Shown here: positions 14,699 to 54,082 of the stretch, piece by piece
How the letters are laid out: each line of letters opens with the position of its first letter
Numbering within the stretch: the first letter of the stretch is position 1
Source of the DNA: Pricia antarctica
Lineage (GTDB): Bacteria > Bacteroidota > Bacteroidia > Flavobacteriales > Flavobacteriaceae
Length of the DNA: 64,000 nt
Direction: 5' to 3'
NCBI RefSeq assembly: GCF_900101815.1
Contig: NZ_FNAO01000005.1
Coordinates: 124,001 to 188,000 of the forward strand
Position numbers and translations under genes: made by a program
Notes under the pieces: generated by a model
Seen by the model: the letters and a program-made list of their open reading frames with translations, nothing else
What the model was told of the DNA's origin: nothing
The model's database searches: none

Positions 14699-14741
14699 TG
14701 ATCTAAATCATTTTGAAGCTGATCCGCATCGCATAGTTTTG
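14699..14741 (+). promoter_or_regulatory. FNR-type box and promoter of the AhpD-like gene
   Basis: TGATCTAAATCA (14699-14710) is a TGAT-N4-ATCA palindrome. A perfect -7 element TAGTTTTG begins at 14734, 29.5 bp from the box centre. That places the box at about -41.5, the class II FNR position, with transcription starting near 14746. Confidence 0.75.
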
Positions 14742-14758
14742 GGATTGAAACGAAGGGG

Positions 14759-15142
14759 ATGAACGTCCCTTCCCAAAACAGAAAAGTGATGATACGGGAC
14801 TATTCAAAAAACTATAACGCTTCGACCAAGGCCATGAAGAAATTGGGCACCCGAATACCCGACACCATGAAAGGTTTTACAGATCTGCATAGGGCGAGTA
14901 CCGCCGAGGGTGCACTTTCGACAAAGACCAAAGAACTTATTGCACTCGGAATTGCCATTACCGTGCGCTGTGATGGCTGTATCGCCTTTCACGTACACGA
15001 TTCGTTGAACGCCGGTGCCAGTTCCGAGGAGATTATGGAAACCATTGGCGTGGCCGTGATGATGGGCGGCGGACCATCAGTAATATATGGTTGCGAAGCC
15101 ATGGAGGCGTTGGATCAATTTGCAGCATTGGAGAAAAACTGA
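14759..15142 (+). CDS. Carboxymuconolactone decarboxylase / AhpD-like protein
   Basis: 127 residues in the AhpD-like all-helical family. The motif CDGCIAFHVHDSLNAG carries the CxxC pair plus the distal His of AhpD-type alkylhydroperoxidase-like proteins. The C-terminus (ETIGVAVMMGGGPSVIYG) is the usual second repeat. An alternative ATG at 14789 (MIRDYSKNY) would leave a longer leader. The probable role is thiol-dependent peroxide or redox handling. It is the first gene behind an FNR-type box and is followed 29 bp later by a FWKDE protein gene. Confidence 0.88.
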   Translation: MNVPSQNRKVMIRDYSKNYNASTKAMKKLGTRIPDTMKGFTDLHRASTAEGALSTKTKELIALGIAITVRCDGCIAFHVHDSLNAGASSEEIMETIGVAVMMGGGPSVIYGCEAMEALDQFAALEKN

Positions 15143-15171
15143 ATCGATAACACATCAAAAAGAAAAATATC

Positions 15172-15564
15172 ATGGAAAAAACAAAAGAAGTAGTATACGA
15201 CGAAAACCTTCATTTTGAACACCAAAACTGGAAGTCGGAACTGGACTTTTGGAAAGACGAGCTCAAAACCTTCAATAATCGCTTGAGCGAACTGGTATCA
15301 CGCTATACGAGCAAAGAGGTACTCAAACAATTGGAGCACTACCAAAATGAAATTGCGCTTCATATTGGTATAATCCAAGATTTGCAAGAAACCATCGAGG
15401 AACACGAAGAAAGCATTGCGGGCCATAGCCAAAAGGGCGATGAATCGATGAATATCGCCCTCGTAAACACACATATGGATTTCAGGAAAAAAATGGAGAC
15501 CCAACGCCAAATCTATGCACAATTGAAAAAGGGATTTTTTCGTTTTTTGACCAAGTATATGTAA
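15172..15564 (+). CDS. FWKDE coiled-coil protein, paralogue 1, function unknown
   Basis: 130 residues, soluble, charged and almost wholly helical. The segment NWKSELDFWKDELKTFNNRL aligns with REWLETIAFWKDETKFFFNL of the protein at 19407-19805, and the two stay alignable through the LEHYQNE/LKYLDTI and EEHEESI/TDHEKLL regions. I do not recognise a named family. It follows an AhpD-like gene behind an FNR-type promoter box. Its paralogue also occupies the second place in an FNR-box operon, which suggests a shared role in low-oxygen or redox stress. Confidence 0.85.
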   Translation: MEKTKEVVYDENLHFEHQNWKSELDFWKDELKTFNNRLSELVSRYTSKEVLKQLEHYQNEIALHIGIIQDLQETIEEHEESIAGHSQKGDESMNIALVNTHMDFRKKMETQRQIYAQLKKGFFRFLTKYM

Positions 15565-15845
15565 TTGCAAACCTGCCCGCCCGTACGGTTCCTATCACAT
15601 CGAATACATGATAGAATTCCCCGTTATTAGGTGCTGTGGGGTTTGTGCTGTCCCTTATTCTTGGCTTTTTGGTGGTCATTTTACATTTCAAAACAGTCTA
15701 TTAAATTTCTCGAAACTACCTGTTATTTTTGATTCGGATTACAAGGAAATTCCAAAAATCGGAATCCGGTTTAAAAACAAATATCTGCAGATCGGTTTAA
15801 GCAATAAATAATGCTACTTTTAGTGGGACGATCCAACTGTCGAAT

Positions 15846-18350
15846 ATGATACAAGAAAATTTCAAAATCAAGGGATTGACCTCCGAAGAAGTACTTCAAG
15901 CAAGGGCAACTCACGGAAAAAACCTTTTAGAGGGAAAAAAAGTCCACGGGCTTTTGGATGCCCTCAAAAGTCTGGCACAAGAGCCAATGGTCATTCTATT
16001 GTTGGTGGCCTCTGCCATTTATTTTATCAGCGGAAGCGTTGGAGACGGCATTTTTATGGGGGCCGCCATCGTATTGGTATCCGCTATTTCACTGTATCAG
16101 GATGGCAAGAGTCGCAACGCCCTTGAAAAGCTCAAAGACTTTACCCAGCCTAAATGCAAGGTCATCCGCAATGGCGAGCTTGATGAGATCAACAGCGAGG
16201 AAGTCGTGTTGGGGGATAGCTTAATGGTCGAGGAAGGCTCCATCATCTCCGCAGATGGCCGAATCGTACACTCCAACGACTTTTCGGTCAACGAATCCCT
16301 TCTTACGGGGGAATCGCTTTCCGTTTACAAGGATACCGAAAAAGAGGACAATAAAATCTATAAGGGCACCACCGTAGCAAGCGGCCTCGCCATTGCCACC
16401 GTAACCGCCATCGGCAACGAGACACAGCTCGGAAAAATCGGTAAAAGTCTGGAGGACATTCAAGAAGAAAAAACACCCCTAGAAAGGCAAATCAATAATT
16501 TTGTCAAGAAAATGATCATCGCCGGGGCAATCGTTTTTATGATTGTTTGGGGCATCAACTTTTACAATTCCCGTGATGTGCTTGACAGTTTGCTCAAGGC
16601 CCTTACCCTGGCCATGTCGATTCTACCCGAAGAAATACCCGTTGCCTTTACCACCTTTATGGCCTTGGGTTCGTATCGGTTGCTAAAAATGGGAGTTGTC
16701 GTAAAACAGCTCAAAACGGTCGAGACCTTGGGAAGTGCAACCGTCATCTGCTCCGATAAAACGGGAACGATCACCGAAAACAAGATGTCGCTTGCCAAGG
16801 TGTTTGCGCTTTCCGCTCAAAAAATAACCGATACCAAAAATTCTTTGGGTGAAATGGAAATGGAACTGATCCGATTGGCCATGTGGGCAAGCGAGCCCAT
16901 TCCCTTTGACCCTATGGAAGTTGCCCTGCACGATGCTTACCAAAAAACGAATTCAAAAGACGAACGCCCCGATTACAAAATGGTACACGAATATCCCTTG
17001 GATGGAAAACCGCCCATGATGACGCATCTTTTTGAAAATGCTGCGGGAAACCGGATTATTGCCGCCAAAGGTGCTCCCGAAGCTCTGATGGCAGTTTCCA
17101 ATCTATCCGAAAGCGATAAACAACAGATCAATAAGGCCATCGACGAACTTGCCAAAGACGGCTATCGCGTGCTAGGGGTTGGGGAAACCCGTTTTCAGGG
17201 TACCGACTATCCTAAAAAACAACAGGACTTTAAATTTGATTTTAAGGGAATCGTCGCCTTTTACGATCCCCCTAAAAAGAACATCAATTCCGTTTTCGAC
17301 GCTTTTCACGATGCAGGAATAAAAGTCAAGATCGTTACGGGCGATAATGCCGAAACCACTTCGGCCATCGCCCAAGAAATCGGTTTTCGAGGCTATGAAA
17401 AAAGTGTTTCCGGCGATGAACTGATGAAGCTGACCGAAACCGAACTACAAGAACGGGTACAGACTACCAATGTCTTTCCCCGAATGTTTCCCGAGGCCAA
17501 ACTCAAGATTATCAACGCGCTAAAATCGAACCACGAAATCGTCGCAATGATTGGCGATGGCGTAAACGATGCCCCTGCCCTCAAAGCGTCACATATCGGT
17601 ATCGCCATGGGCAAAAAGGGTACAGAGATCGCCAAAGAAGCTGCCTCTATCATATTGTTGCAAGACGACCTATCGAAAATGGTCGATGCCGTGGCCATGG
17701 GCAGGCGTATTTATACCAATCTAAAAAAAGCGATCCAGTATATCATTTCCATTCACATCCCAATTATCCTAACGGTGTTCATACCATTGGTCTTAGGCTG
17801 GGCATTCCCGAATATCTTTACGCCCGTGCATGTCATCTTTTTGGAATTGATCATGGGGCCGACCTGTAGCATCATCTATGAAAACGAACCCATGGAAAAG
17901 GATACCATGATCCAAAAACCACGTCCGATCAGCACCACTTTTTTTAACTGGCGGGAATTGACCACAAGTGTCATCCAAGGGTTGATGATTACCGTCGGCA
18001 CCCTATCGACCTATCAATATGCCGTGTACCAAGGTTATGACGAAGCCGTTACCCGCACCATGGTCTTTGTGGCCTTAATTTCCGCCAATATCGTTTTGAC
18101 GTTGGTCAATCGATCATTTCGATATTCTATTTGGACCACCCTAAAATATAAGAACAATATGGTGCCGTTGATTATTTTGGTGACGGTGGTATTAACGGCA
18201 TTGCTACTTTTTGTTCCCCCATTGACCCGCTTTTTTGGATTTCAAAAGTTGGGTGCGCATCAAATTCTTGTCCCAATCGGTATTGGGTTTTTATCGGTAA
18301 TTTGGTATGAACTCGTGAAATGGAAGAAAAGGGGAAAGAAAACCCCCTAA
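15846..18350 (+). CDS. Cation-translocating P-type ATPase
   Basis: 834 residues in the P2/PMR1-like layout: an N-terminal cation-ATPase region (LTSEEVLQARATHGKNLL), the actuator domain TGES at 154-157, M4 with PEEIP (261-265), phosphorylated Asp304 in DKTGT, the hinge GDGVNDAPALKASHIGIAM, and several C-terminal helices. Ca2+ or Mn2+ would be usual for this layout, but the M4 motif reads PEEIP where SERCA-type pumps have PEGLP, so the ion is uncertain. No heavy-metal-binding domain is present. It lies near Hsp20 and redox genes, like the P-type ATPase CtpF in dormancy regulons. A weak -7-like TACTTTTA at 15815 precedes it. Confidence 0.92.
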   Translation: MIQENFKIKGLTSEEVLQARATHGKNLLEGKKVHGLLDALKSLAQEPMVILLLVASAIYFISGSVGDGIFMGAAIVLVSAISLYQDGKSRNALEKLKDFTQPKCKVIRNGELDEINSEEVVLGDSLMVEEGSIISADGRIVHSNDFSVNESLLTGESLSVYKDTEKEDNKIYKGTTVASGLAIATVTAIGNETQLGKIGKSLEDIQEEKTPLERQINNFVKKMIIAGAIVFMIVWGINFYNSRDVLDSLLKALTLAMSILPEEIPVAFTTFMALGSYRLLKMGVVVKQLKTVETLGSATVICSDKTGTITENKMSLAKVFALSAQKITDTKNSLGEMEMELIRLAMWASEPIPFDPMEVALHDAYQKTNSKDERPDYKMVHEYPLDGKPPMMTHLFENAAGNRIIAAKGAPEALMAVSNLSESDKQQINKAIDELAKDGYRVLGVGETRFQGTDYPKKQQDFKFDFKGIVAFYDPPKKNINSVFDAFHDAGIKVKIVTGDNAETTSAIAQEIGFRGYEKSVSGDELMKLTETELQERVQTTNVFPRMFPEAKLKIINALKSNHEIVAMIGDGVNDAPALKASHIGIAMGKKGTEIAKEAASIILLQDDLSKMVDAVAMGRRIYTNLKKAIQYIISIHIPIILTVFIPLVLGWAFPNIFTPVHVIFLELIMGPTCSIIYENEPMEKDTMIQKPRPISTTFFNWRELTTSVIQGLMITVGTLSTYQYAVYQGYDEAVTRTMVFVALISANIVLTLVNRSFRYSIWTTLKYKNNMVPLIILVTVVLTALLLFVPPLTRFFGFQKLGAHQILVPIGIGFLSVIWYELVKWKKRGKKTP

Positions 18351-18412
18351 TTCGTCATTTAGAGAATAGCGAAAAATTCCACGTACAATTGCTCCGTTCA
18401 ACAAATTCCTCT

Positions 18413-18428
18413 CCCGATAACTATCGGG
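18413..18428. repeat. Short inverted repeat
   Basis: CCCGATA and TATCGGG flank a 2-bp centre. No T run follows on either strand, so a small repetitive palindrome is more likely than an intrinsic terminator. Confidence 0.5.
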
Positions 18429-18513
18429 GGGGTCGGAATTACAAAAGAGAGAAGTGCCTCGGAACGACAAAAGAGAGTACAATATAAAACCTAACAGCTT
18501 TAAAAATACCGAA

Positions 18514-19278
18514 ATGAACATCATCTCATGGAACGTCAACGGCATACGTGCCGCAGTCAAAAAAGATTTTTTCGACTCTATCGAAAAACTTAATCCCGAC
18601 ATGCTCTGTTTACAGGAGACAAAGGCACAGGACGATGAAACGGAATCGGCTTTGTCGCTTTTGAAAGGTTATCATAACACCTATAATTCAGCGGACAAAA
18701 AGGGCTATTCCGGAACAGCCATATTAAGCAAACCGGAAGCATTGTCTATTACCCTCGACATGGGCATTGCAGAACACGATAACGAAGGGCGGATACAATG
18801 TGCGGAATACACAGATTTTTATCTTGTAAATGTCTATGTCCCCAATTCGGGACAGCAATTGGATCGCTTGGACTACCGCCAAAAATGGGATGCCGACTTT
18901 TTGAAATACCTTAAAAACCTAGAAAAGAAAAAACCCGTAATCGCATGTGGCGATTTTAATGTGGCCCATCGCCCTATCGACCTGAAAAACGATAAATCGA
19001 ACTACAACAAAACGGCGGGCTATACCCAAATCGAGATCGATGGCATGGATAACTTCATCAACTCCGGTTTTGTGGATTCATGGCGAAAACTACATCCCGA
19101 AGAAGTGGCCTATACCTATTGGAGCTATCGTTTCAAGGCCCGCGAACGCAATACAGGTTGGCGAATCGACTATTTTCTGATCAGCGAATCCCTAATGGAT
19201 AAAGTAAAGTCGGTAAGGATCTATTCGAATATTCTGGGCTCCGATCATTGCCCGATCGGGCTTGAGATTGATTTGTAA
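18514..19278 (+). CDS. xth: Exodeoxyribonuclease III
   Basis: 254 residues from the ATG at 18514 (MNIISWNVNGIRA). An upstream in-frame ATG at 18454 adds 20 atypical residues and is not preferred. Endonuclease/exonuclease/phosphatase fold motifs are in order: WNVNGIRA with the metal-site Asn, CLQETK with the catalytic Glu, GDFNVAH, and the C-terminal SDHCPIGLE with the Asp-His pair. It acts on abasic sites and degrades DNA 3'-5' during base excision repair. The length is that of bacterial ExoIII/ExoA enzymes. Confidence 0.95.
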   Translation: MNIISWNVNGIRAAVKKDFFDSIEKLNPDMLCLQETKAQDDETESALSLLKGYHNTYNSADKKGYSGTAILSKPEALSITLDMGIAEHDNEGRIQCAEYTDFYLVNVYVPNSGQQLDRLDYRQKWDADFLKYLKNLEKKKPVIACGDFNVAHRPIDLKNDKSNYNKTAGYTQIEIDGMDNFINSGFVDSWRKLHPEEVAYTYWSYRFKARERNTGWRIDYFLISESLMDKVKSVRIYSNILGSDHCPIGLEIDL

Positions 19279-19406
19279 AGTGGAGATGGATTAGTTTTAA
19301 AGGCTCCTTCCTTTTTTAAAGGGAGGTGGATTCGCTCTAGAGAAGACGGTGGGATTAAGTGTGCAAATACTTTGAGTTGCTAGCCCCTCTTTACCCTAGA
19401 AACCAT

Positions 19407-19805
19407 TTAAAGTTTCTTCGCATACCCAAAGACCATCTTCTTGAATTCCTTGAAATCGTTCTCGAACAGCACCATGCTTTCGTTGAGCTTTTGGTGTTCA
19501 TCCCTATAATCGGCATCCGAAAGGCCCTTTTCGTTTTTTTCCAAACGGGACAATAGTTTTTCGTGGTCGGTAATATCGTCCGCAAGGTAATCAAAAAGAT
19601 TCTCGTGGATCGTATCAAGATATTTCAGCATGTGGCCATATTCCGATTCCTTGGTTTCCTTTTTATCCAAAAGATTGAAGAAGAATTTGGTCTCGTCTTT
19701 CCAAAACGCGATGGTCTCCAACCATTCGCGGCTTTCTTGGTGCAGCACGTCAAGGCCTGCGCCCAATAACAGTTCCCTTTTCGGATTAGGTGTTGTTGCA
19801 TTCAT
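19407..19805 (-). CDS. FWKDE coiled-coil protein, paralogue 2, function unknown
   Basis: 132 residues, soluble, acidic and helical. The core WLETIAFWKDETKFFFNLL matches the protein at 15172-15564. The middle is dominated by heptad-like helices (YLDTIHENLFDYLADDITDH). It starts 11 bp after the sigma-like gene and shares its promoter with an FNR-type box. No catalytic motif is visible; a structural or sequestering role would be a guess. Confidence 0.85.
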   Translation of the reverse strand: MNATTPNPKRELLLGAGLDVLHQESREWLETIAFWKDETKFFFNLLDKKETKESEYGHMLKYLDTIHENLFDYLADDITDHEKLLSRLEKNEKGLSDADYRDEHQKLNESMVLFENDFKEFKKMVFGYAKKL

Positions 19806-19816
19806 GATATTTGGTT

Positions 19817-20590
19817 TTAAGTATTGTCCGCAAAGTGCCTGTTTAAAAAACTGGTCTCCAAACTTTTTCGGGCATTTTCTAGAAGTTCTCTTATTTCTTG
19901 AATGCTCTGATTTCGTATTTTGGCGATTTCCTCTACATCAAAATGGTATTGTGTGGCCAGTTCAAAGACGGTTCGCATGGGTAAAGGCAAATAGTGCAAT
20001 ACCATATCAGCATGTCTTCTGATGTTCTTCTCGCCTAATTCTTTGTCCAGTTTGTCAATGATTTCCTTTTTGTCGTCTTCCACGAAAACATGGTTCAGCA
20101 TGTAGTCGTTCTTAGGGTATGAAATATCATCCAGCTCTTCTAGCATGACCAAATCACCATCACCATCGGTGCTGAATTTTTCCTCCATCTCGTTCCATTC
20201 AGGTCTTGAAAAATCATCGATATTTTCAAAGAAAACCGCATCGAATTCCTCATCAATTATGGTATCATCCAAGAGTTCATCGGCCTTTTTGAACAGCCAT
20301 GGGTAGAAATCCGCTTTGTTTCCCACTTCATCAAAATGGTCATAGACCTCGATGAACAATTGATCTATAAAATCATCGGGGCGATACTTTCCCCTTGGGA
20401 GGTTTCCCTTTGATAATGCCGTGTTCAATCTTTTGGTAATGTACCGCCTTACTTGGGGCAAATCTTTCAGCAATAGTTCATTAAAGGCTTTTTTATCTCC
20501 AAAATCCTTGATTTCTTTTAAATCGGGGTACGTACTTGCTACAAATATGTGGAACTCTTTTCGGGTCTTATAGACTATTTTATTATTCAT
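19817..20590 (-). CDS. Sigma-70-like (ECF-type) regulator
   Basis: 257 residues from the ATG at 20590. A GTG 10 codons upstream is ruled out because it would lie before the predicted transcription start near 20615. The N-terminal part (VRRYITKRLNTAL, then PDDFIDQLFIEVYDHF) resembles sigma region 2, and an acidic linker of about 60 residues follows. The C-terminus (LPLPMRTVFELATQYHF, then VEEIAKIRNQSIQEIRELL) is a sigma region 4 helix-turn-helix. The long acidic linker is unusual for ECF factors. It leads an operon with a FWKDE protein gene. Its targets are unknown. Confidence 0.75.
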   Translation of the reverse strand: MNNKIVYKTRKEFHIFVASTYPDLKEIKDFGDKKAFNELLLKDLPQVRRYITKRLNTALSKGNLPRGKYRPDDFIDQLFIEVYDHFDEVGNKADFYPWLFKKADELLDDTIIDEEFDAVFFENIDDFSRPEWNEMEEKFSTDGDGDLVMLEELDDISYPKNDYMLNHVFVEDDKKEIIDKLDKELGEKNIRRHADMVLHYLPLPMRTVFELATQYHFDVEEIAKIRNQSIQEIRELLENARKSLETSFLNRHFADNT

Positions 20591-20619
20591 GGTTATCGAT
20601 TTTAATTTTATGGGTGGCA

Positions 20620-20662
20620 CAAAAATCCAATCTTTATTCCATCGATAAAATGATGTAGGTCA
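20620..20662 (-). promoter_or_regulatory. FNR-type box and promoter of the sigma-like operon
   Basis: On the minus strand the palindrome TGACCTACATCA (20662-20651) is followed, 29.5 bp from its centre, by GATTTTTG (20627-20620), one mismatch from TAnnTTTG. The sequence of the box is the reverse complement of the one at the hsp20 promoter. Confidence 0.65.
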
Positions 20663-20810
20663 GTTGTAGGTATTTTTTAGGATGCTATACCCACGGTTAA
20701 AATTATTCAAGACTGGTGTGCGTCATTTTGAGGTGTAATGCATCAAGCCATTTTTATGCGAAATGACAGGAATGACTGGAATGAATGGAATGACATCTTA
20801 AACCAAAGCA

Positions 20811-21654
20811 ATGCAAATCGCACATCCCGACAAAATACTGTTTCCGAAAAAAATTGATGTTTATCGGAATTGTGCGACAGTCACTTACGTTTTTAAGAAT
20901 ATTTATCCCACCCATTTCGCAGGTACAAGTGCAGGGGCAATTGTTGGGGCACTATATGCTGCGGGACACGGTTGGCAAGAAATTCTCGATTTTTTTAAGA
21001 CGGTGCAGTTATTCAGTATTGATAAATATGCCAGAAGCAAACCGGGCTTTGTTGATACCGAAAAGTTCCATGGCAGTTTTGCCAAATACTTGCCCGTAGA
21101 CGATTTTGCGGCACTCAAAACACCGCTCTATATCACAGCGACCCGTATTCTGGACGGCACCTTGAAAGTCTTCCACCAGGGTGAACTGATTCGGCCGGTC
21201 TTGGCCTCGGCCGCTTTTCCCGGAGTTTTTGCCCCCGAAAAGATCGATGAGGGCTATTATTCCGATGTAGGTATTTTGAACAATTTCCCTTCCGACCTCA
21301 TCAGAATGTATTGTCACCAATTGATAGGTGTGTACGTAAATCCCTTTGAAAAAGTGAAGATCCAAGATTTGAGACATTCCTATACCATTATGGAACGCGC
21401 CTATAAAATACGTATGGCAAAGGATTCTTTGGATAAGTTCAAAGAGTGCCATCAGGTCATTTCCCCCAAAGACCTTACGAATTACAGTACGTTTTCCCTA
21501 AAGAATATGGATGCTATTTTCGAGGTGGGTTATGTGTGCCACCAAAAAGGCTTTGCAAAATTGGCATACCTTACAAGAAAAGGAGGCAGAGAGGGCCGAA
21601 TTGGAAGCCATGAACGGGTTTGCGATGAAAGTCGTGAAGAATGATGCGAATTAA
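20811..21654 (+). pseudogene. Broken patatin-like phospholipase
   Basis: The central part is clearly patatin-like: the nucleophile elbow GTSAGAIVGALYA, the SAAFPGVFAP segment, and SDVGILNNFP at the catalytic-Asp site, where DGG/DGA is usual and DVG is seen. The N-terminus lacks the glycine-rich oxyanion-hole loop and does not look like the family before the PTHFAGTSAG segment. Near 21545, after a run of five A, the frame slips; the alternative frame continues sensibly (KALQNWHTLQEKEAERAELE) to a TAA at 21652-21654. A lost N-terminus plus a C-terminal frameshift make it a pseudogene. Confidence 0.7.
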
Positions 21655-21832
21655 CGGACTATAACAATTTGTCATTCTAATAAAGTGAGTAATCTATTGA
21701 ACAGGGCAACAAGGCGTGGAATTCTTCGCGGCGCCCTTAACGACACGAAAAAAGGACAATGCCCTCAAGCCAAACCTATTTAAATGGACGCATCTAGATT
21801 TCGGGACAAGGGCATTCTTGGACAAAAGATGT

Positions 21833-22297
21833 TTAGGTGATTTCAACCTTTTTAGGCGGCAATTTTTTGGGCTCTTCTTTTTTAACGAGCTTAAAGCTCA
21901 AGATGCCCCCTTCATACTTGGCCTTTATATCTTCTTGCTTTATGGTTTCTGGCAATTGCAATGAACGTTGAAAAGAGTTGTAGCTGAATTCCTTACGGGT
22001 GTAATTATCCTCTTTTTGCTCTTCTTTGGTCTCTTTTTCGGCCTTGATATTCAGACAGCCATCTTCGATGGTTATCTCAAAATCTTTTTTAGTAAAACCG
22101 GGAGCGGCAAGTTCGATCTCGAAATTGCCTTCGTTCTCCATGATGTTAAGGGCCGGTTCCGCTGTTTTTCCGTTCCAAAAAGTATCGGGCAGCATATTCC
22201 CGACCCAATTGCGGTTATCAAAAAAATCATCCATATCGAAAAAATCTTGGGTAATTAGATTTCCAAAAGGCTTTCTTCTAAATTTTACTAGTGACAT
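21833..22297 (-). CDS. Small heat-shock protein, Hsp20/alpha-crystallin family
   Basis: 154 residues with the alpha-crystallin domain at about 45-140 (NEGNFEIELAAPGFTKKDFE at its start) and the conserved end of the domain KYEGGILSFKL. The short N-terminal arm and the C-terminal tail PKKLPPKKVEIT give the I/V-x-I-like anchoring end. It is an ATP-independent holdase that prevents aggregation in the cytoplasm. A TGAY-N4-RTCA box at the FNR distance lies upstream, so oxygen or redox control in place of classical heat-shock control is suggested. Confidence 0.94.
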   Translation of the reverse strand: MSLVKFRRKPFGNLITQDFFDMDDFFDNRNWVGNMLPDTFWNGKTAEPALNIMENEGNFEIELAAPGFTKKDFEITIEDGCLNIKAEKETKEEQKEDNYTRKEFSYNSFQRSLQLPETIKQEDIKAKYEGGILSFKLVKKEEPKKLPPKKVEIT

Positions 22298-22337
22298 AAC
22301 GTTATATTTTTAGGTTAACAATTATTGGAATATATCC

Positions 22338-22380
22338 CGAAAGTACAACCATGCTATATTTTGCAAAATGACCTACATCA
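22338..22380 (-). promoter_or_regulatory. FNR-type box and promoter of hsp20
   Basis: Minus-strand TGATGTAGGTCA (22380-22369) has its centre 29.5 bp from TACTTTCG (22345-22338), one mismatch from TAnnTTTG. The predicted start near 22333 leaves a leader of about 36 nt to the ATG at 22297. Confidence 0.65.
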
Positions 22381-24431: not shown

Positions 24432-24437
24432 CCCCTG

Positions 24438-47052: not shown

Positions 47053-47326
47053 GTTTCTCGATTTAAAATGAATGTCTTATCCAAGCGCATTTTAATATAC
47101 TAGGGAGTTGTACAATTGCGCTCAAAATAAAACACGATTAATTTACGTATAAATCTACTTTTTTCTGTTCATTTCGGGGAAATAATTCCGTTTTTCCCAT
47201 TCCGCGACCCGCAGCCTGCCTCAGTATTTAATTTTTTTGGTTCAATACAAGCAAATGTTGATTCAAACCGGCCGTTGTTTGTTTTCAAACGCGCCTTACC
47301 TTAACTTTAAAGCAAAACATAGTATT

Positions 47327-48421
47327 ATGAACCCACTATTGGAAGTACTACAACAAGGACAGAGCATTTGGCTAGATCTTTTGGATCGAAAAATGATGGA
47401 TTCTGGCAAATTGAGATCTTGGATCGATGATGACGGGCTGCGGGGCATTACCTCGAATCCGGCCATTTTTGAAAAAGCGATCAGCAACAGTTCCGACTAT
47501 GACGAAGATATTGCGTCGCTCGCCAAAAACGAGAACAACAACGAGGCTATTTTTTTCGGCCTGGCCGTAAAGGATATTCAACGTGCCACGGATATCTTTC
47601 AACCCATTTACGAAGAGACCGAAGGCCTGGACGGTTACGTCAGCCTTGAAGTATCCCCATTTTTGGCTCGGGATACCAACGGCACGATAGCACAGGCTAG
47701 GGAGCTTTGGAAAAAAGTAGACCGCAAAAACGTGATGATCAAGATTCCCGGTACCAAAGAAGGATTGCCTGCCATACGAAAATGCATCAGCGAAGGCATC
47801 AATATCAATGTGACCCTCTTGTTCGGTATTCCCCGGTACAAGGAAGTAACGGAAGCCTTTATCAGCGGTCTGGAAGACAGGCTCGACGCTGGTAAATCCA
47901 TTGACGGAATCGCGTCCGTAGCCAGCTTTTTCCTGAGCCGTATTGATGTGATGGTCGATCCCATGTTGGAAGAAAAAGGCCTAAAAGATTTAAAAGGCGA
48001 GGTGGCCATTGCCTCCGCAAAAAAGGCCTATCAGATCTATCAGGAAGTATTCTCCCGCGATCGTTTTAAAAAATTAAGGAAGAAAGGGGCAAAACCCCAA
48101 AGGGTACTTTGGGCCAGTACCAGTGTCAAAGACCCCTCGTTCCGCGATGTCAAATACGTAGAGGCCCTTATCGGTCCGGAAACCGTCAATACCCTGCCAT
48201 TAGATACTTTGGAAGCCTTTCGCGACCATGGTAAAGTGGCCAACGAGCTGACCGAAAATACCGATCACTCGGATAAGGTGCTACACCAATTAAAGGAAAA
48301 AGGAATCAATATCGACAAGGTCACACAAGACCTGGAAGACGAGGGTATCGAAAAATTCAATACACCGTTCGACAAACTTTTAAAAGGGATCGAGGCACAA
48401 AAACAAAAGGCGGTTTCTTAA
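47327..48421 (+). CDS. tal: Transaldolase
   Basis: 364 residues from the ATG at 47327 (MNPLLEVLQQGQSIWLDLLD); an in-frame start at 47237 adds atypical residues. The signature GITSNPAIFEKAI is the N-terminal active-site loop, and the Schiff-base Lys lies in VMIKIPGTKEG. The C-terminus has ASTSVKDPSFRDVKYVEALI. It is the longer actinobacterial/Bacteroidota-type transaldolase of the pentose phosphate pathway. It is monocistronic. Confidence 0.94.
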   Translation: MNPLLEVLQQGQSIWLDLLDRKMMDSGKLRSWIDDDGLRGITSNPAIFEKAISNSSDYDEDIASLAKNENNNEAIFFGLAVKDIQRATDIFQPIYEETEGLDGYVSLEVSPFLARDTNGTIAQARELWKKVDRKNVMIKIPGTKEGLPAIRKCISEGININVTLLFGIPRYKEVTEAFISGLEDRLDAGKSIDGIASVASFFLSRIDVMVDPMLEEKGLKDLKGEVAIASAKKAYQIYQEVFSRDRFKKLRKKGAKPQRVLWASTSVKDPSFRDVKYVEALIGPETVNTLPLDTLEAFRDHGKVANELTENTDHSDKVLHQLKEKGINIDKVTQDLEDEGIEKFNTPFDKLLKGIEAQKQKAVS

Positions 48422-48670
48422 TCTTTCGGTTGATGAAGCTTAGAATAAGCATAGCATACATGATGCGGCCATGCTCTCTAAAAGTAGCCTTTAAATTATG
48501 ATTATTTTAACTGTTGCTATACATTTTATTTACACACTTTATGCGATAGTCCTTTTATTTACCCTGACATCGTGGTAATTTTTCTTAACGCTCTTTTTTA
48601 GGGAACGTGGCACTACGCTCATTGGCATTACGCTGTGATTGTCATCGGAGTTATCATTGGATTTAAATAC
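48422..48670. other. Intergenic region with a possible tiny hydrophobic ORF
   Basis: An ATG at 48498 opens 26 codons (MIILTVAIHFIYTLYAIVLL ending in SW) to TAA at 48576-48578. A second frame without an ATG ends with HYAVIVIGVIIGFKYKKPA just inside the terminator hairpin. Both read like pieces of small membrane proteins, but neither has convincing start signals, so I list them only as possibilities. Confidence 0.3.
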
Positions 48671-48697
48671 AAAAAACCAGCTTAGGGCTGGTTTTTT
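48671..48697. terminator. Bidirectional terminator hairpin
   Basis: AAAAAACCAGC (48671-48681), loop TTAGG, then GCTGGTTTTTT (48687-48697) gives a strong stem with T runs on both strands. It separates the region after transaldolase from the convergent small gene at 48723-48866. Confidence 0.85.
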
Positions 48698-48722
48698 TTA
48701 GTTTAAAGGCGTTGAAAAGACC

Positions 48723-48866
48723 TTACGCATTATCTCTAGGCTGGTGCTTCTCTTGCCGCTGTTTTTCCTGCTGGTTTATTTTCTTGCCATCGGTTTCTTT
48801 GTGATTGATGGCCTGCTCACCAATACTTTGCTTTCCTTTTTCGATTTTATTCTTGTTTTTATCCAT
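48723..48866 (-). CDS. Small hydrophilic protein (47 residues)
   Basis: MDKNKNKIEKGKQSIGEQAI followed by NHKETDGKKINQQEKQRQE and a short end HQPRDNA. It is highly charged and Lys/Gln-rich, with no hydrophobic segment, probably disordered and cytoplasmic. I recognise no family. It has its own terminator directly downstream at 48671, which supports real transcription. Confidence 0.6.
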   Translation of the reverse strand: MDKNKNKIEKGKQSIGEQAINHKETDGKKINQQEKQRQEKHQPRDNA

Positions 48867-48925
48867 AATAATAGTATTTAAAATTAGCGTTTATGGGATA
48901 ATTCCCGTTTCTTATTTTTATAGTA

Positions 48926-49080
48926 TCAAGCCTTGGCTATGGTATTTTGGTTCAAGTAATCTTTTGGCACAGCGGTCAACTTTCCATCCGAATCCTGTTC
49001 TTCGTTCAAGGTATTCTGTAGTTCATCAGCATGGCATCAAGACCTATTTCCTTTGCAAGGCGAACAATATATCATATCCA
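48926..49080 (-). pseudogene. DUF892 (YciF-type ferritin-like) remnant
   Basis: The minus strand encodes, in more than one frame, pieces in the order SGYDIL, RLAKEIGLDAM and DELQNTLNEEQDSDGKLTAV, then PKDYLNQNTIAKA and TGA. This matches the last two helices of YciE/YciF-like DUF892 proteins, where AGYGTL, LAKxLG, LLxxTLxEE and a LTxxA end are usual. Frame changes and the missing first half show decay. Confidence 0.55.
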
Positions 49081-49284
49081 GATATTTTTAGAAATAATAC
49101 TACCTTAACCCATATTACCAAGTTAGGAGGTAACTGACGGATCTATTGACCCAAAAGGGCTTATCTATGACCTTAAAGCAAAATCGGTTCAGAATAGTTA
49201 GTATAAAAAGGGGACAGACTATCAAATTTCAGATCGTCTTAACAGCACCGGAGATCAATTTTCGTTATATTGTTGTAAAAAATA

Positions 49285-49509
49285 ATGAAAGATTCAGCTA
49301 TGTTCTGGGTGGCAGCCACCACCCTTGTTTTGATAACAGTTACAATCATGTCGGTTATGAACTTTGCCTTCAATTGGGTGTTTTATATCACCGTATTAGG
49401 GCAAATAATGATTGTATTTATGGTCTATAGGGTGTTACGGGACAACTATACCACCGATAAAACCTTTGCCGACTTTTATGAAGACCATCCCATAGGGCGG
49501 CAGGAGTAA
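49285..49509 (+). CDS. Small two-helix membrane protein
   Basis: 74 residues with two helices (about 5-27 and 31-50) followed by a charged tail (RVLRDNYTTDKTFADFYEDH). No family is recognised. It lies between the DUF892 remnant and the uspA gene, which is on the other strand. The clean start and composition support it. Confidence 0.65.
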   Translation: MKDSAMFWVAATTLVLITVTIMSVMNFAFNWVFYITVLGQIMIVFMVYRVLRDNYTTDKTFADFYEDHPIGRQE

Positions 49510-49661
49510 CCTAGCGCCAGGCTTGACGGTTAGGCATTACGCCGAACGCAAATCGCTTTACGCTTCTATTGGCTCTACGGCATACGGAGTAAAACAATAA
49601 GCTTCGCCGACTAAATTTTGGAATAATTGTAATAAGGGTTTAGCCATGCCACTTCCTAGCC

Positions 49662-50564
49662 TCAATTTGACACCGCGTTTTGCCCAGAAGATTTTCGTTT
49701 GGGCGCGAGCCCCATACCCAGTTCGGGAATGACCAATAGCGGAATTTGGGTGTGGAAAGCCACACGCTTGACTACCGGTTCACGGGTCATACGCTCCATA
49801 TAGCTGTGTTGATAGTTGAGCATGGCCAGTAAATGGATATCGAGTTCGTTGGTAAAGGCCTCCAAGGTTTTTGAGACGGAATTCAATTCGGAAACCGTAT
49901 GCACGTAATGCTCAACGTTCTTTAAATATTTACGAAGCATGCCTAGATTGAACTGCTGAAGCTCCGTCAATGCCATGATTTCATACTGTACATGAACAAT
50001 GCGGATAGCCGCCCCAAAGGCTTTCGCCATCTCGATCAACGGCTGTAGCTCAGATTGCGCATAGAAACGGTTAAAGTCCGTTGCAAAAGCGATTTCAGTA
50101 GGAGTCACAAAATCGAAATCTTGTGGAATGGCCAATACCGGGCAATTTTTGATGGATTTGATCATGCGTACGGCATTGCTTCCCATAAAAACCTCTTCCA
50201 TGCCCGATGCCCCCTTGGTTCCGGTCACGATCAAGTTGATATTGTGGTTTTCGACCGTATCCTTGATTTCGTCCACCAAAAAACTGAAAGATGAAATGGT
50301 TTTATAGTGATGATAGGGATTGTTGTCCCATTTTTTTATCCGCTCCACCCATGTCTTGAGTCCCCTTTCGGAATGCAGATGTGCACCATCTTCGAACGCC
50401 GCCCCGTCAAAATTGGCGGCCATAAAACGACTACTGGCTATGGCCGGTGTGTATACGTTCAGTAAATGAAAGATACATTTCTCGTTCTTGAAAAGATCCA
50501 TAGCGTATCTTGCGGCGTTCCATGCGTTTTCGGAAAAATCCGTAGGTATCAAAATGTTCTTCAT
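49662..50564 (-). CDS. Universal stress protein (tandem UspA)
   Basis: 300 residues from the ATG at 50564 (MKNILIPTDFSENAWNAARY). An in-frame upstream ATG at 50609 lies before the predicted transcription start and is rejected. Two Usp domains: the first has the ATP-binding signature GTKGASGMEEVFMGSNAVRM, while the second (about 155-285) lacks a full G-x2-G-x9-G-S/T motif. Such tandem Usp proteins help survival under starvation or low oxygen. The promoter has an FNR-type box identical in 23 bp to that before ccoS. Confidence 0.92.
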   Translation of the reverse strand: MKNILIPTDFSENAWNAARYAMDLFKNEKCIFHLLNVYTPAIASSRFMAANFDGAAFEDGAHLHSERGLKTWVERIKKWDNNPYHHYKTISSFSFLVDEIKDTVENHNINLIVTGTKGASGMEEVFMGSNAVRMIKSIKNCPVLAIPQDFDFVTPTEIAFATDFNRFYAQSELQPLIEMAKAFGAAIRIVHVQYEIMALTELQQFNLGMLRKYLKNVEHYVHTVSELNSVSKTLEAFTNELDIHLLAMLNYQHSYMERMTREPVVKRVAFHTQIPLLVIPELGMGLAPKRKSSGQNAVSN

Positions 50565-50590
50565 GAGTGTTGTGCTTGGGAATATGGCAA

Positions 50591-50642
50591 CAAATGTATA
50601 GGGGACCATTAACGAAAACTATGATATTTATCAGGTTTTCTG
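50591..50642 (-). promoter_or_regulatory. FNR-type box and promoter of uspA
   Basis: Box TGATATTTATCA (50622-50633) is centred 29.5 bp from a perfect -7 element TACATTTG (minus strand 50598-50591). The 23 bp at 50620-50642 are the exact reverse complement of 54031-54053 before ccoS. Confidence 0.85.
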
Positions 50643-50756
50643 CGATTTGTTCAACTACTCTTACTTTACGTGACGTCACAACAAATAATCAAAACATAGC
50701 CTGAGTGGAAGTTTGCTACAGTAGTCTCCAAATTTTAGTCATGCCGGATAGTCTTC

Positions 50757-51458
50757 TCAAAATCCGTCGATCACGTTCTGAAGTCCTTTTTCGTCAACGA
50801 TGGCAACCTTTTTACCGGAGGTTTTCAGAAATCCCTTTTTCTTAAATTCTGAAATTATCCGGATACACGATTCCGTTGCGGTACCGACCACATTGGCAAT
50901 ATCTTCTCGGGAAAGGGTCAAGGATAAAAACCCGTTCTTATCTTCCCCAAAGTTTGTTTTCAGGTACAGAAACGCCTCGGCAATGCGCTGTTTTACCGTT
51001 TTTTGGCCCATGTTCACGATAACGTCATCGGCTTCCTTGAGATCGTGGGCCATATGGCGCAACACCTCAATAGTGAAATTGGGATTTCCGTTCAGCGTAG
51101 TGGAAATAATCTCTTTGGGTATAAAACAGACTTCCATGTCATCGACAGCGGTGGCACTTAGGTTGGTGACTTCTTCGGCAATAACGGAACGCTGGCCCAA
51201 TACCTCGGCCTTGGCGGCCAATTTCACAATTTGGTTCTTCCCGTTGGCACTCAGTTTCGACAGTTTTGAGACTCCGTTTCGCACACAATAGACCCCTGGC
51301 AATTTTTCGCCTTCCTCAAAAATCGGCTGTCCTTTCTTGACTATTTTGACGGTTTTGGCATCAGAAACTTTTTTCAGTTCTTCTTTACTCATTGCCCGCA
51401 AGGCATTGAACTGCCTTACGATACAACTTTCACAACGGGTCTGTATACCATCTATCAT
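50757..51458 (-). CDS. Crp/Fnr-family regulator with FNR-like cysteines
   Basis: 233 residues: a cyclic-nucleotide-fold sensor domain (about 20-140), a dimer helix (ADDVIVNMGQKTVKQRIAEA) and a C-terminal winged helix (LTLSREDIANVVGTATESCI). The N-terminus holds Cys9 and Cys12 in CESC, with Cys58 and Cys111 in the sensor domain. Four such Cys could bind a 4Fe-4S cluster as in FNR, although the spacing differs from E. coli (20, 23, 29, 122). It faces ccoI across a shared FNR-type box. It is the best candidate for the regulator that reads the TGAY-N4-RTCA boxes in this window. Confidence 0.88.
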   Translation of the reverse strand: MIDGIQTRCESCIVRQFNALRAMSKEELKKVSDAKTVKIVKKGQPIFEEGEKLPGVYCVRNGVSKLSKLSANGKNQIVKLAAKAEVLGQRSVIAEEVTNLSATAVDDMEVCFIPKEIISTTLNGNPNFTIEVLRHMAHDLKEADDVIVNMGQKTVKQRIAEAFLYLKTNFGEDKNGFLSLTLSREDIANVVGTATESCIRIISEFKKKGFLKTSGKKVAIVDEKGLQNVIDGF

Positions 51459-51482
51459 ACGCTCGATATTTTCTCAACGGTG

Positions 51483-51556
51483 TAAAAATACAGATTACAA
51501 AAAAGAGAAAACATGACAATTATCATATTCTCGGACGGCTATTGTCGGCATCTTTG
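51483..51556. promoter_or_regulatory. Divergent FNR-type promoter between the FNR-like gene and ccoI
   Basis: Box TGACAATTATCA (51514-51525). To the right CATCTTTG (51549-51556) and to the left, on the minus strand, TATTTTTA (51490-51483) each start exactly 29.5 bp from the box centre and differ from TAnnTTTG at one base. One bound dimer could therefore serve both ccoI and the regulator's own gene. Confidence 0.7.
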
Positions 51557-51577
51557 CTACCGGTATTTAGAATAGCT

Positions 51578-53974
51578 ATGGAAACGGTCAACTGTTATCA
51601 TTGTGGGGACGATTGTGGGGCCGCGCCAATTATTTTCGACGAAAAAGAATTTTGCTGCAACGGTTGCAAGACGGTCTACGAAATATTCGACACGAACGAC
51701 CTATCCTATTATTATGATTTGCAATCGGCCGCGGGTGCGACCCCAAAAACGAGCGAGGGTAAATATGATTATCTAGAGACCGAGGCTATCATCGAACGCT
51801 TGACGGAATTCAGCGACACCGAGCTGCAGATTATCAATCTCTACATTCCACATATTCACTGTAGTTCTTGTATTTGGGTACTTGAAAACCTGAACAAATT
51901 GAATCCGGCCATCAGCTTATCGCAGGTTGATTTTCCAAAAAAATCGGTGAGGGTCACGTATAATCCCTCAAAAATCCCCTTAAAGCAACTGGTGATCCTA
52001 CTTTCGAAAATTGGCTACGAGCCCTATATTTCCTTGGATGATTTTGACAATAAAAAGAAGGACATCGACCGCAACCTGATCTACAAATTGGCGGTGGCGG
52101 GTTTTGCTTTCGGCAATGTAATGTTCTTATCTTTTCCCGATTATTTTGATATGTCATTGAGCCGTACGTCAGGTGGTGAATTCTGGCTCAACCAATACGA
52201 GACCTTATTTCGGTGGATGATGTTCGCCTTTTCGTTGCCCGTTGTTTTTTATGCCGGAAGGGATTATTTTATCTCCGCCTACAAAGGCTTGCGCAGTAAA
52301 CTATTAAACATCGACGTGCCTATCGCTTTGGGCATTCTGGTACTTTTTCTTCGAAGCACGGTAGAAATCATTTTCGATTGGGGAAGCGGGTTTTTCGATT
52401 CTCTAACGGGATTGGTTTTCTTCCTATTATTGGGGAAATTCTTCCAACAAAAAACCTATGACTTCCTTTCTTTTGAGCGGGACTATAAGGCCTACTTCCC
52501 AATTGCAATAACCCGGATTACAGCCGAAGGAAAAGAAATCACAACACAGTTACATGAAATTGAACGCGGCGATCGTTTGTTGATCCGCAACGAAGAACTG
52601 ATTCCGGTCGACGGTATCATGATCAATGGAACTGCCCGAATCGACTATAGTTTTGTTACGGGAGAATCGGAACCTATAAGCAAGCAATCGGGGGATAAGG
52701 TCTATGCGGGAGGAAAACAATTGCAGGGCGCCATCGAGATGGAGGCCTTAAAATCCGTCTCGCAATCGTACCTGACCCAATTGTGGGGCAATTCCGTTTT
52801 CCAAAACAATACGCAGAGCAAATTCCGTACGTTGACCGACAGCATCGGAAGGCGGTTTACGATTGCCGTGCTGTCCATCGCTTTTATTTCTACAGCTTTC
52901 TGGCTTTACCTCGACCCGAGCAAGGCGCTGAACGTCTTCACCGCTGTGCTCATCATTGCTTGCCCCTGTGCCATCGCTCTCGCGGCACCCTTTACCTTGG
53001 GAAACCTACTCCGCATCTTCGGCCGTAAAAAATTCTACCTAAAAGATACGCAAACCATCGAGCAGCTCGCCCTTATCGACACGGCCATTTTCGATAAGAC
53101 GGGAACGATTACAACATCCCAAAAAAGTATGGCCACCTATGAGGGCATGCCCCTGACCGCTCAAGAAGAATCGCTTTTAAAAAATACCCTCCGCGCTTCG
53201 AACCATCCGCTTAGCCGCACATTGTACAACATGCTCGCCGAACAGGATATCTATACCTTAGATGAATACGAAGAGCATCTGGGCAAGGGCTTGGAAGGCA
53301 CAAAGGACAACGACCATATGAAAATCGGTTCGATGGATTTTGTAGGCAATCGGCAACCGAAAGACGCCCTCAACACTTCGGTGCATATCAGTAGCAACGA
53401 TTCGTACAGGGGCAAATACGTGTTTTACAACCACTATCGTGAGGGGGTTAGCGAATTATTTCAGGGGATGTCCGGATTTTTGGACCTCGCCCTACTTTCG
53501 GGGGACAACGAAGGCGAAAAAGAGCGGTTACAGCAACTGCTTCCTCAAAATACGCCGCTCCATTTCAACCAAAAACCGGAAAGCAAACTGCATTTTATAA
53601 AATCGTTGCAAGAAAAAGGCAAAAAGGTCTTGATGCTCGGCGACGGACTGAACGATGCCGGCGCCTTGGCCCAAGCCGATGTAGGAATCGCCATTTCGGA
53701 AAACGTAAACATATTTTCGCCAGCATGCGATGGTATTTTGGATGCTTCCAAATTCCAGCAGCTTTACCAGTACATTCTGGCATCCCAAAAAGCAATGAAA
53801 ATAGTCAAACTTTGCTTTATCCTATCTCTATTATACAACGCAATCGGCCTCTATTTCGCCGTAACCGGACAGCTACGGCCTGTTGTAGCTGCCATTCTGA
53901 TGCCATTGAGCTCAATTAGCGTAGTGGCATTCGCAACGGGTATGACGAATATATTGGGAAGGAAGTTAAGGTGA
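51578..53974 (+). CDS. ccoI: Cu+-exporting P-type ATPase for cbb3 oxidase assembly
   Basis: 798 residues from the ATG at 51578; an ATG-less extension to 51542 lies before the predicted transcription start. The N-terminal Cys-rich zinc-ribbon-like domain (CYHCGDDCG, then CCNGC) is followed by a heavy-metal-associated domain with CSSC at 95-98. TGES is at 361-364, the transport-site CPC at 462-464, the phosphorylated Asp506 in DKTGT, and the hinge GDGLNDAGALAQADVGIAI near the end. FixI/CcoI pumps deliver copper for the cbb3 active site. The gene stands at the head of the cluster, separated from ccoS by an FNR-box promoter. Confidence 0.94.
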   Translation: METVNCYHCGDDCGAAPIIFDEKEFCCNGCKTVYEIFDTNDLSYYYDLQSAAGATPKTSEGKYDYLETEAIIERLTEFSDTELQIINLYIPHIHCSSCIWVLENLNKLNPAISLSQVDFPKKSVRVTYNPSKIPLKQLVILLSKIGYEPYISLDDFDNKKKDIDRNLIYKLAVAGFAFGNVMFLSFPDYFDMSLSRTSGGEFWLNQYETLFRWMMFAFSLPVVFYAGRDYFISAYKGLRSKLLNIDVPIALGILVLFLRSTVEIIFDWGSGFFDSLTGLVFFLLLGKFFQQKTYDFLSFERDYKAYFPIAITRITAEGKEITTQLHEIERGDRLLIRNEELIPVDGIMINGTARIDYSFVTGESEPISKQSGDKVYAGGKQLQGAIEMEALKSVSQSYLTQLWGNSVFQNNTQSKFRTLTDSIGRRFTIAVLSIAFISTAFWLYLDPSKALNVFTAVLIIACPCAIALAAPFTLGNLLRIFGRKKFYLKDTQTIEQLALIDTAIFDKTGTITTSQKSMATYEGMPLTAQEESLLKNTLRASNHPLSRTLYNMLAEQDIYTLDEYEEHLGKGLEGTKDNDHMKIGSMDFVGNRQPKDALNTSVHISSNDSYRGKYVFYNHYREGVSELFQGMSGFLDLALLSGDNEGEKERLQQLLPQNTPLHFNQKPESKLHFIKSLQEKGKKVLMLGDGLNDAGALAQADVGIAISENVNIFSPACDGILDASKFQQLYQYILASQKAMKIVKLCFILSLLYNAIGLYFAVTGQLRPVVAAILMPLSSISVVAFATGMTNILGRKLR

Positions 53975-54030
53975 GGGAAGAAAGGATTGTGGAAATCGGG
54001 GTCTTGAACAGCCAATGATTTATAAAAAAA

Positions 54031-54082
54031 CAGAAAACCTGATAAATATCATATTTCGTGAAATATCCCGAATGTAGTTTTA
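54031..54082 (+). promoter_or_regulatory. FNR-type box and promoter of ccoS and the cbb3 operon
   Basis: Box TGATAAATATCA (54040-54051) has its centre 29.5 bp before TAGTTTTA (54075-54082), one mismatch from TAnnTTTG. The predicted start near 54087 leaves a short leader to ccoS. The 23 bp at 54031-54053 recur inverted at the uspA promoter. Confidence 0.8.

What the first reader, a model, noticed from the sequence alone, without database searches (positions are those of the whole stretch)
14699..54082. FNR-type boxes at one fixed distance from the -7 element at seven promoters
TGAY-N4-RTCA palindromes lie at 14699, 20651, 22369, 50622, 51514 and 54040. In every case the centre is exactly 29.5 bp from the first base of a TAnnTTTG-like element (TAGTTTTG, GATTTTTG, TACTTTCG, TACATTTG, CATCTTTG, TATTTTTA, TAGTTTTA). 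The 51514 box serves two divergent promoters. With the -7 element at about -12 to -5, the boxes sit at -41.5, the class II position known for FNR/CRP. This defines a regulon: AhpD-like plus FWKDE, sigma-like plus FWKDE, Hsp20, UspA, ccoI, the FNR-like gene itself, and the cbb3 operon.
Basis: partly seen in the sequence, partly recalled or inferred. Interest (0 to 1): 0.8.

Follow-up and report, generated by a model that had tools for sequence, protein, structure and literature searches.

The report
Low-oxygen promoters with one fixed spacing
A marine-type bacterium of the Bacteroidota phylum seems to switch on dozens of low-oxygen and stress genes through one rigid promoter layout, an activator-binding box exactly 23 bases before the start signal, and the same layout recurs in related bacteria that appear to use a different regulator protein.

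Summary
In the whole genome the composite TGAYN4RTCA-N23-TAnnTTTG occurs 29 times, reversed pattern 0; with the spacer free (8-38), 29 of 39 hits have spacer 23, none 22 or 24. The peak at 23 holds in 40 family genomes (334 of 699 hits at spacers 14-32) and is absent from a family in which 30 of 30 sampled genomes gave no match to the regulator (8 of 138 hits). Such promoters precede ccoI, cbb3 oxidase, hemN, nirK, Usp, Hsp20 and FNR-like genes. TAnnTTTG lies at -12 to -5 in mapped flavobacterial promoters (PMC9723704), so the boxes sit at -41.5, class II. Two corrections: the set is larger (76 hits with one mismatch, control 3), and the FNR-like gene is probably not its only reader. Receiver-Crp fusions carry an alike recognition helix, and five genomes with a fusion but no FNR-like match keep the layout. 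The FNR-like protein lacks the third canonical cysteine but has another invariant one.

The parts
14699..14710 (+). box TGATCTAAATCA; -7 TAGTTTTG at 14734-14741 (+)
   Evidence: strict genome-wide hit
14759..15142 (+). AhpD/carboxymuconolactone decarboxylase-like gene, 17 nt after the -7; small FWKDE-type gene 15172-15564 follows
20651..20662 (-). box TGACCTACATCA; -7 GATTTTTG at 20620-20627 (-)
19817..20590 (-). weakly sigma-like gene; small FWKDE-type gene 19407-19805 (-) follows
   Evidence: below cut-off; no Pfam match
22369..22380 (-). box TGATGTAGGTCA; -7 TACTTTCG at 22338-22345 (-)
21833..22297 (-). Hsp20 gene
50622..50633 (-). box TGATAAATATCA; -7 TACATTTG at 50591-50598 (-)
   Evidence: a composite lies before a UspA-like gene in 76 of 80 related loci
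49662..50564 (-). UspA gene
51514..51525 (.). shared box TGACAATTATCA between divergent promoters: -7 CATCTTTG 51549-51556 (+, ccoI) and TATTTTTA 51483-51490 (-, fnr)
   Evidence: elements at spacer 23 on both sides in 60 of the 70 relatives that have a strict box upstream of fnr, of 80 looked at
50757..51458 (-). FNR-like regulator; Cys9, Cys12, Cys58, Cys111 invariant in 81 of 81 (window and 80 relatives); Asn18 in place of the third FNR cysteine
51578..53974 (+). ccoI (E1-E2 metal ATPase; ccoI by context)
54040..54051 (+). box TGATAAATATCA; -7 TAGTTTTA at 54075-54082 (+)
   Evidence: in the 80 related loci 69 composites are classed to ccoNO and 4 to ccoS
54102..56640 (+). ccoS/FixS (54102-54347) and fused ccoNO (54442-56640), start of the cbb3 operon

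Best explanation
The boxes are operators of CRP/FNR-family activators placed rigidly at -41.5 of primary-sigma promoters of the Bacteroidota type (-7 TAnnTTTG). The dimer takes over the work of the degenerate -33 element and contacts polymerase as a class II activator. In low oxygen it turns on the cbb3 oxidase, oxygen-independent haem synthesis, nitrite reduction, Usp and Hsp20 stress proteins and its own gene. A box may serve two divergent promoters because both lie at the same distance. The site is probably read by two kinds of regulator: the FNR-like protein, which very likely senses oxygen through an iron-sulphur cluster, and receiver-Crp fusions driven by PAS histidine kinases. Shown: sequence, spacing, enrichment, conservation, gene content, regulator inventory. 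Inferred: binding, activation, transcription starts, oxygen dependence, cluster, and which kinase drives which fusion.
For: Own genome: 29 strict composites, reversed control 0; 29 of 39 at spacer 23 when it may run 8-38, reversed control 3; 76 against 3 with one mismatch. In 340 kb of own sequence fetched around hits and Crp genes, 85 boxes carry 68 elements (at most one mismatch) at 23 and 0-2 at each other spacer from 12 to 35. Relatives, hits at 23 of those at 14-32: 334 of 699 (40 family genomes), 36 of 140 (8 order), 138 of 438 (49 class); reversed pattern at 23: 8, 0 and 9. 80 related fnr loci: 305 composites at 23 against 2-18 at each other spacer (14-32); 299 could be classed: ccoI 80, UspA 76, FNR 70, ccoNO 69, ccoS 4. 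Negative control: 86 genomes of family f18 have 8 of 138 at 23 (p 0.44), and 0 of 30 sampled f18 genomes match the regulator profile, which rang in 58 of 59 genomes. TAnnTTTG is at -12 to -5 of mapped starts in F. psychrophilum (PMC9723704; passages, abstract and section 15 part 1 seen), where cbb3 and haem genes rise in oxygen limitation (passage). Logo of 68 own sites: T 96% at -35, T 71% at -33 and -32, A 38-49% at each position from -64 to -59 (which corrects an edge error). Two regulators.
Against: No transcription start, binding or expression data for this organism. Of the 29 strict sites, only 16 have the start of the longest nearby ORF 15-40 bases after the -7; 2 are closer, 10 further (84-338), 1 has no such ORF. 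24 of 85 boxes in the fetched stretches have no element at spacer 23. Of the seven own boxes with elements on both sides, genes are evident on both sides only at ccoI-fnr and at C19:477601 (Usp, thioredoxin); the others have a broken, distant, doubtful or no gene on one side. 10 of 80 relatives have no strict box in the 250 bases before fnr. 10 of 27 Usp loci in fetched stretches have no box within 450 nt; several follow another Usp gene. Some genes behind boxes have no evident link to oxygen (HlyD, MlaE, OEP, PLD, ArsR). The AlphaFold model of the FNR-like protein is poor (mean pLDDT 63.7), so cysteine geometry is untested. The share of each regulator is not resolved.
Confidence: 0.85

Rival explanations
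1. The whole set is a simple FNR regulon read by the FNR-like protein at 50757-51458 alone; receiver-Crp fusions bind elsewhere.
For: Strict box before its own gene in 70 of 80 relatives; G271 and G306, where the profile rings only one FNR-type match each at E 1e-12, have 28 and 30 composites.
Against: Five genomes with a receiver-Crp-type match and no FNR-like match keep 6, 6, 3, 7 and 10 composites, 15 of 30 read ones before relatives of own box-driven genes. Recognition helices are alike. A composite follows the receiver-Crp gene within about 90 bases in 5 of 13 fetched loci and twice in the own genome. Family genomes with both types average 13.4 composites (n 14) against 6.45 with FNR alone (n 20; Mann-Whitney p 0.0005, 0.0009 without the window's genome); but fusions scoring just under E 1e-12 would be missed, since one counted fusion scores only 3e-13, and two counted fusions hold a stop.
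Confidence: 0.2
2. The boxes are repressor sites over the -33 region, not activator sites.
For: The box abuts the -33 region, where the TTG-type element is degenerate.
Against: A repressor needs no single-base rule for spacing; no strict hit has spacer 22 or 24. The targets (cbb3, hemN, nirK) are of the kind that FNR activates in other bacteria (established knowledge). A-rich sequence stands where class II promoters bind alpha-CTD (position recalled).
Confidence: 0.07
3. The CRP/FNR homologues here sense carbon (MalR-like), as predicted for a Flavobacteriales MAG.
For: PMC8510549 (passages, one of them from its abstract) predicts this for homologues in its Flavobacteriales, Saprospiraceae and Ignavibacteria bins.
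Against: That prediction rests on clustering near MalR and a MalR matrix. The protein here has FNR-type N-terminal cysteines and Cys111 and its sites precede low-oxygen genes.
Confidence: 0.04
4. Chance co-occurrence in AT-rich intergenic DNA.
For: Single boxes do occur by chance (3.92 expected in the window).
Against: Reversed control 0 against 29, spacer specificity, f18 negative control.
Confidence: 0.001

Closest known systems
E. coli FNR class II promoters (for example pnrf)
   Same: FNR-type palindrome centred at -41.5; PMC5434802 (passages) states that FNR at a single site at -41.5 suffices for maximal pnrf induction.
   Different: Here the core promoter is the Bacteroidota -7 TAnnTTTG with T-rich positions at -35 to -32 in place of a -35 element; receiver-Crp fusions probably read the same site; the third cysteine ligand differs.
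Single CRP target activating divergent promoters (El-Robh and Busby 2002)
   Same: One dimer serving two divergent promoters. Only title and citation seen; the paper is not held.
   Different: Its title speaks of a systematic study with probe plasmids; here the layout is natural: elements on both sides at 7 of 85 boxes in the fetched own stretches (genes evident on both sides at two), and the fnr-ccoI case at 60 of the 70 relatives with a strict box.
DosR dormancy regulon of mycobacteria (recalled, not compared by a tool)
   Same: Many Usp proteins, Hsp20 and small redox or unknown proteins under one low-oxygen regulator, with sensor kinases.
   Different: DosR is a LuxR-type response regulator with another site; here CRP/FNR-type proteins act. 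A likeness of content, not membership.
Flavobacterium psychrophilum promoter map (PMC9723704)
   Same: -7 TAnnTTTG at -12 to -5; cbb3 and haem genes up in oxygen limitation.
   Different: Its main text has no word beginning with 'fnr' or 'crp'; supplements not seen.

Membership tests
FNR (iron-sulphur oxygen sensor) | cNMP-type beta-roll plus Crp HTH | tested here: met
   PF00027, PF13545 and PF00325 above cut-off; PDB FNR chains from E 2e-23, though the best PDB match is another Crp/Fnr-family protein, 2gau, at 1e-24
FNR (iron-sulphur oxygen sensor) | four cysteine ligands equivalent to Cys20, Cys23, Cys29, Cys122 (E. coli numbering recalled) | tested here: not met
   Cys9, Cys12 and Cys111 align with three; Asn18 (81 of 81) stands at Cys29; extra invariant Cys58
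FNR (iron-sulphur oxygen sensor) | NCBIfam Fnr model above curated cut-off | tested here: not met
   98.3 bits against 228
FNR (iron-sulphur oxygen sensor) | recognition helix E-x3-R reading TGA half-sites | tested here: met
   E196 and R200 in 81 of 81; the FNR serine between them (recalled) is Ile199 here
FNR (iron-sulphur oxygen sensor) | oxygen-labile [4Fe-4S] cluster | not testable with these tools
   needs purified protein
Class II activator-dependent promoter | activator site centred at about -41.5 | tested here: met
   spacer 23 plus -7 at -12 to -5 in a relative; the start in this organism is inferred
Class II activator-dependent promoter | transcription start 12 bases after first base of -7 | not testable with these tools
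   no 5'-end data for this organism
Class II activator-dependent promoter | activation of transcription by the bound dimer | not testable with these tools
   needs reporter or in vitro transcription
Receiver-Crp fusion regulator | Response_reg + cNMP_binding + HTH_Crp_2 in one chain | tested here: met
   three own proteins and one (L211) of the five fusion-only relatives by Pfam; the other four by length of open frame, three of them also by alignment

The most novel reading that the evidence does not exclude
Bacteroidota have one promoter grammar for low oxygen, a -41.5 box with a -7 element, that two unlike sensors read interchangeably: an FNR variant that holds its cluster with Cys9, Cys12, Cys58 and Cys111 instead of the canonical four, and phosphorelay receiver-Crp fusions that replace it where it is absent. 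For the ligand swap: all 21 aligned proteins with CxxC and no cysteine at the Cys29 column have both Cys58 and Cys111 (L174, L175, L179 and L182 have other N-terminal cysteines further on); L183 and L184 (CxxCx4C) and L181 (a denser N-terminal cysteine group) keep Cys111 but lack Cys58; L185, L186, L187 and L198, without CxxC, lack both; none of 16 receiver-Crp rows has Cys58, two have a cysteine at the Cys111 column. A tandem paralogue in L193 (Cys9 and Cys58 only) fits neither pattern.
Probability: 0.5. Interest if true: 0.75.

Novelty: new variant of a known kind. Interest (0 to 1): 0.62.

Why it matters
It gives a testable, genome-scannable rule for which genes Bacteroidota switch on in low oxygen. 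My searches of the held library found no described regulon of this kind (only PMC8510549 of their hits was opened). It ties the phylum's unusual promoter to a classical activation geometry, predicts targets in dozens of genomes, points to an FNR with a different cysteine set, and shows promoters that appear to keep their layout while the regulator changes.

Tried and rejected
Chance: rejected by spacer and reversed controls. FNR as only reader: weakened by the five genomes without an FNR-like match. AlphaFold of the FNR-like protein (34 close orthologues) was too poor to judge cysteine geometry; the fold was not searched. Literature: one search gave one review (listing only) that holds the three words; searches returned none; one paper on Alphaproteobacteria and two papers (listings only, not opened); one search gave PMC8510549, which assigns Flavobacteriales homologues to MalR (passages). 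One search was a mis-specified pattern (spacer 21 instead of 23, a misplaced Y); it gave 1 hit and is not used as evidence. One search counted 69 sites, 30 of them strict, through an edge error; one search gives 68 and 29.

Limits of the counts: the 85 boxes lie in stretches fetched because they hold hits or Crp genes, so only the spacer comparison, not the density, is unbiased. One search uses 97 of the 395 genomes (family, order, class, without the window's own); one search uses the 86 f18 genomes that I transcribed; the remaining genomes were not summed. The 80 fnr loci are the best 80 of 196 and are related, not independent. Regulator classes (20 FNR only, 5 receiver-Crp only, 14 both, of 41 family genomes with the window's own) were read by hand at E 1e-12 and open-frame length; G088 and G312, whose FNR is of another type, were left out of the comparison. 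Of the 32 composites in fusion-only genomes 30 came with loci and were read; 15 of those 30 resemble own genes.
Full report
Observation. The window (4.85 Mb genome, contig C23:124001-188000) holds ten TGAYN4RTCA palindromes. Over all ten boxes and spacers 12-35, eight elements lie at 23 and four at all other spacers. The eighth belongs to box 13400 (- strand), before an outer membrane efflux gene.

Whole genome. The strict composite occurs 29 times against 0 for the reversed pattern. Freeing the spacer (8-38) gives 39 hits, 29 at 23, none at 22 or 24, 10 scattered, reversed control 3. One mismatch gives 76 against 3. Hits cluster on C19:454-483 kb and C23:45-245 kb, with a few on other contigs. 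In 340 kb fetched around hits and Crp genes, 85 strict boxes carry 68 elements (at most one mismatch) at spacer 23 and 0-2 at every other spacer from 12 to 35; seven boxes have elements on both sides, none at any other spacer. Of the 29 strict sites 16 have the longest nearby ORF starting 15-40 bases after the -7, 2 closer, 10 further, 1 none; the median leader in F. psychrophilum is 24 (PMC9723704).

Conservation. In 40 other genomes of the family 334 of 699 hits (spacers 14-32) are at 23, where the other 18 spacers average 20; order 36 of 140; class 138 of 438; the reversed pattern at 23 gives 8, 0 and 9. Of all 395 Bacteroidota genomes drawn, 162 have a strict hit. A family (f18) whose 30 sampled genomes gave no match to the FNR profile at E 1e-12 (the same query rang in 58 of 59 genomes) shows no peak: 8 of 138 over 86 genomes. 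In 80 relatives' fnr loci, the best 80 of 196 found, 305 composites lie at 23 and 299 could be classed by BLASTP against own proteins: ccoI 80, UspA 76, fnr 70, ccoNO 69, ccoS 4. Of the 70 with a strict box in the 250 bases before fnr, 70 have an element (.AnnTTT[GA]) at 23 towards ccoI (CAnnTTTG in 59) and 60 also towards fnr.

Position and anatomy. Mapped flavobacterial promoters put TAnnTTTG at -12 to -5 (PMC9723704), so the box centre is at -41.5. A logo of 68 own sites (first made) shows, besides box and -7, T at -35 (96%), T at -33 and -32 (71% each), A or C only at -48, A at -50 (68%) and 38-49% A at each position from -64 to -59. I read this as a degenerate -33 element next to the activator and an upstream contact for alpha-CTD (inference).

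Regulon. Among the genes that I put to Pfam and NCBIfam, those behind boxes include cbb3 assembly and subunits, hemN, copper nitrite reductase, cytochromes c, di-haem peroxidase, a PEP synthase-type enzyme, an ATP synthase alpha/beta-type subunit, a ROK kinase, BON, two Hsp20, two pyridoxamine-oxidase-like proteins, thioredoxin and two PAS histidine kinases, but also HlyD, MlaE, PLD, ArsR-type, OEP and DUF proteins without an evident link to oxygen. The genome has 34 Usp loci by my grouping of the 44 domain matches; 26 lie in the two clusters; of 27 in fetched stretches 17 have a box with an element (two mismatches allowed) within 450 nt.

Regulators. Ten Crp-type HTH matches include the FNR-like protein, three full receiver-Crp fusions and two short pieces of such fusions. 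FNR-like and receiver-Crp proteins share A-T-E-[ST]-x-I-R in the recognition helix in most aligned rows. Among 41 family genomes: FNR without a fusion 20, mean 6.45 composites; fusion only 5, mean 6.4; both 14, mean 13.4; two with another FNR type set aside. These classes rest on an E cut-off of 1e-12; one counted fusion scores 3e-13, so weaker fusions may hide in the first class, and two counted fusions hold a stop. In the five fusion-only genomes there are 32 composites; 30 were read, and 15 of their downstream ORFs resemble own box-driven genes: six Usp, three ccoNO, three hemN, two cytochrome c, one Hsp20. A strict box with an element at 23 follows the receiver-Crp gene in L211, L209 and L213 and, with one mismatch, in L203 and L202, of 13 loci with full-length fusions looked at, and in the own genome at C19:474000 and C23:224494; the third own fusion has none directly behind it, but a kinase-fusion operon with a box in front (C19:468392).

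Cysteines. In 81 of 81 orthologues Cys9, Cys12, Cys58 and Cys111 are invariant. Cys9, Cys12 and Cys111 align with FNR ligands; Asn18 stands at the third, and Cys58 aligns with an alanine of FNR. In the distant set all 21 proteins with CxxC and no cysteine at the Cys29 column have Cys58 and Cys111; L181, L183 and L184 have further N-terminal cysteines and Cys111 but no Cys58; none of 16 receiver-Crp rows has Cys58. Cys58 as replacement ligand is my inference; the model was too poor to test it.

Verdict. A real regulon with class II geometry, conserved in the family and visible in order and class; not a new mechanism, but a new variant in core promoter, cysteine set and probable sharing by two regulator types.

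Noticed in passing
   Followed up: partly
window 15172-15564 and 19407-19805; L099:13066-13452, L100:12862-13365, L102:4525-4983, L102:7607-8089: Small 'FWKDE' proteins first or second behind boxes: the six that I saw are 16-64% identical to the first and match nothing in Pfam or NCBIfam; the genome was not searched for more.
   Followed up: partly
C19:453-479 kb and C23:65-252 kb (L099-L109): Large expansion of Usp genes: 26 of 34 Usp loci lie in the two regions where the boxes cluster.
   Followed up: partly
L211, L209, L213, L203, L202; C19:474000, C23:224494, C23:245251: A box with its -7 lies within about 90 bases after receiver-Crp genes or pieces; in the cases whose next gene was read (three own, L118, L122, L130) it is a Usp gene.
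   Followed up: partly
C23:70488-70703 and C23:245012-245242: Short open pieces of receiver-Crp type next to boxes, apparently remnants.
   Followed up: no
relatives L009-L088, ccoI promoter: The ccoI -7 element is CAnnTTTG, not TAnnTTTG, in 59 of 70: a conserved departure at the first base, perhaps keeping the promoter dependent on its activator.
   Followed up: partly
G271 and G306 (another class of the phylum), L146-L173: 28 and 30 strict composites with a single FNR-type match each. In G271 only the ccoI relative (L167) was confirmed; by my reading of translations others look anaerobic.
   Followed up: partly
   Followed up: no
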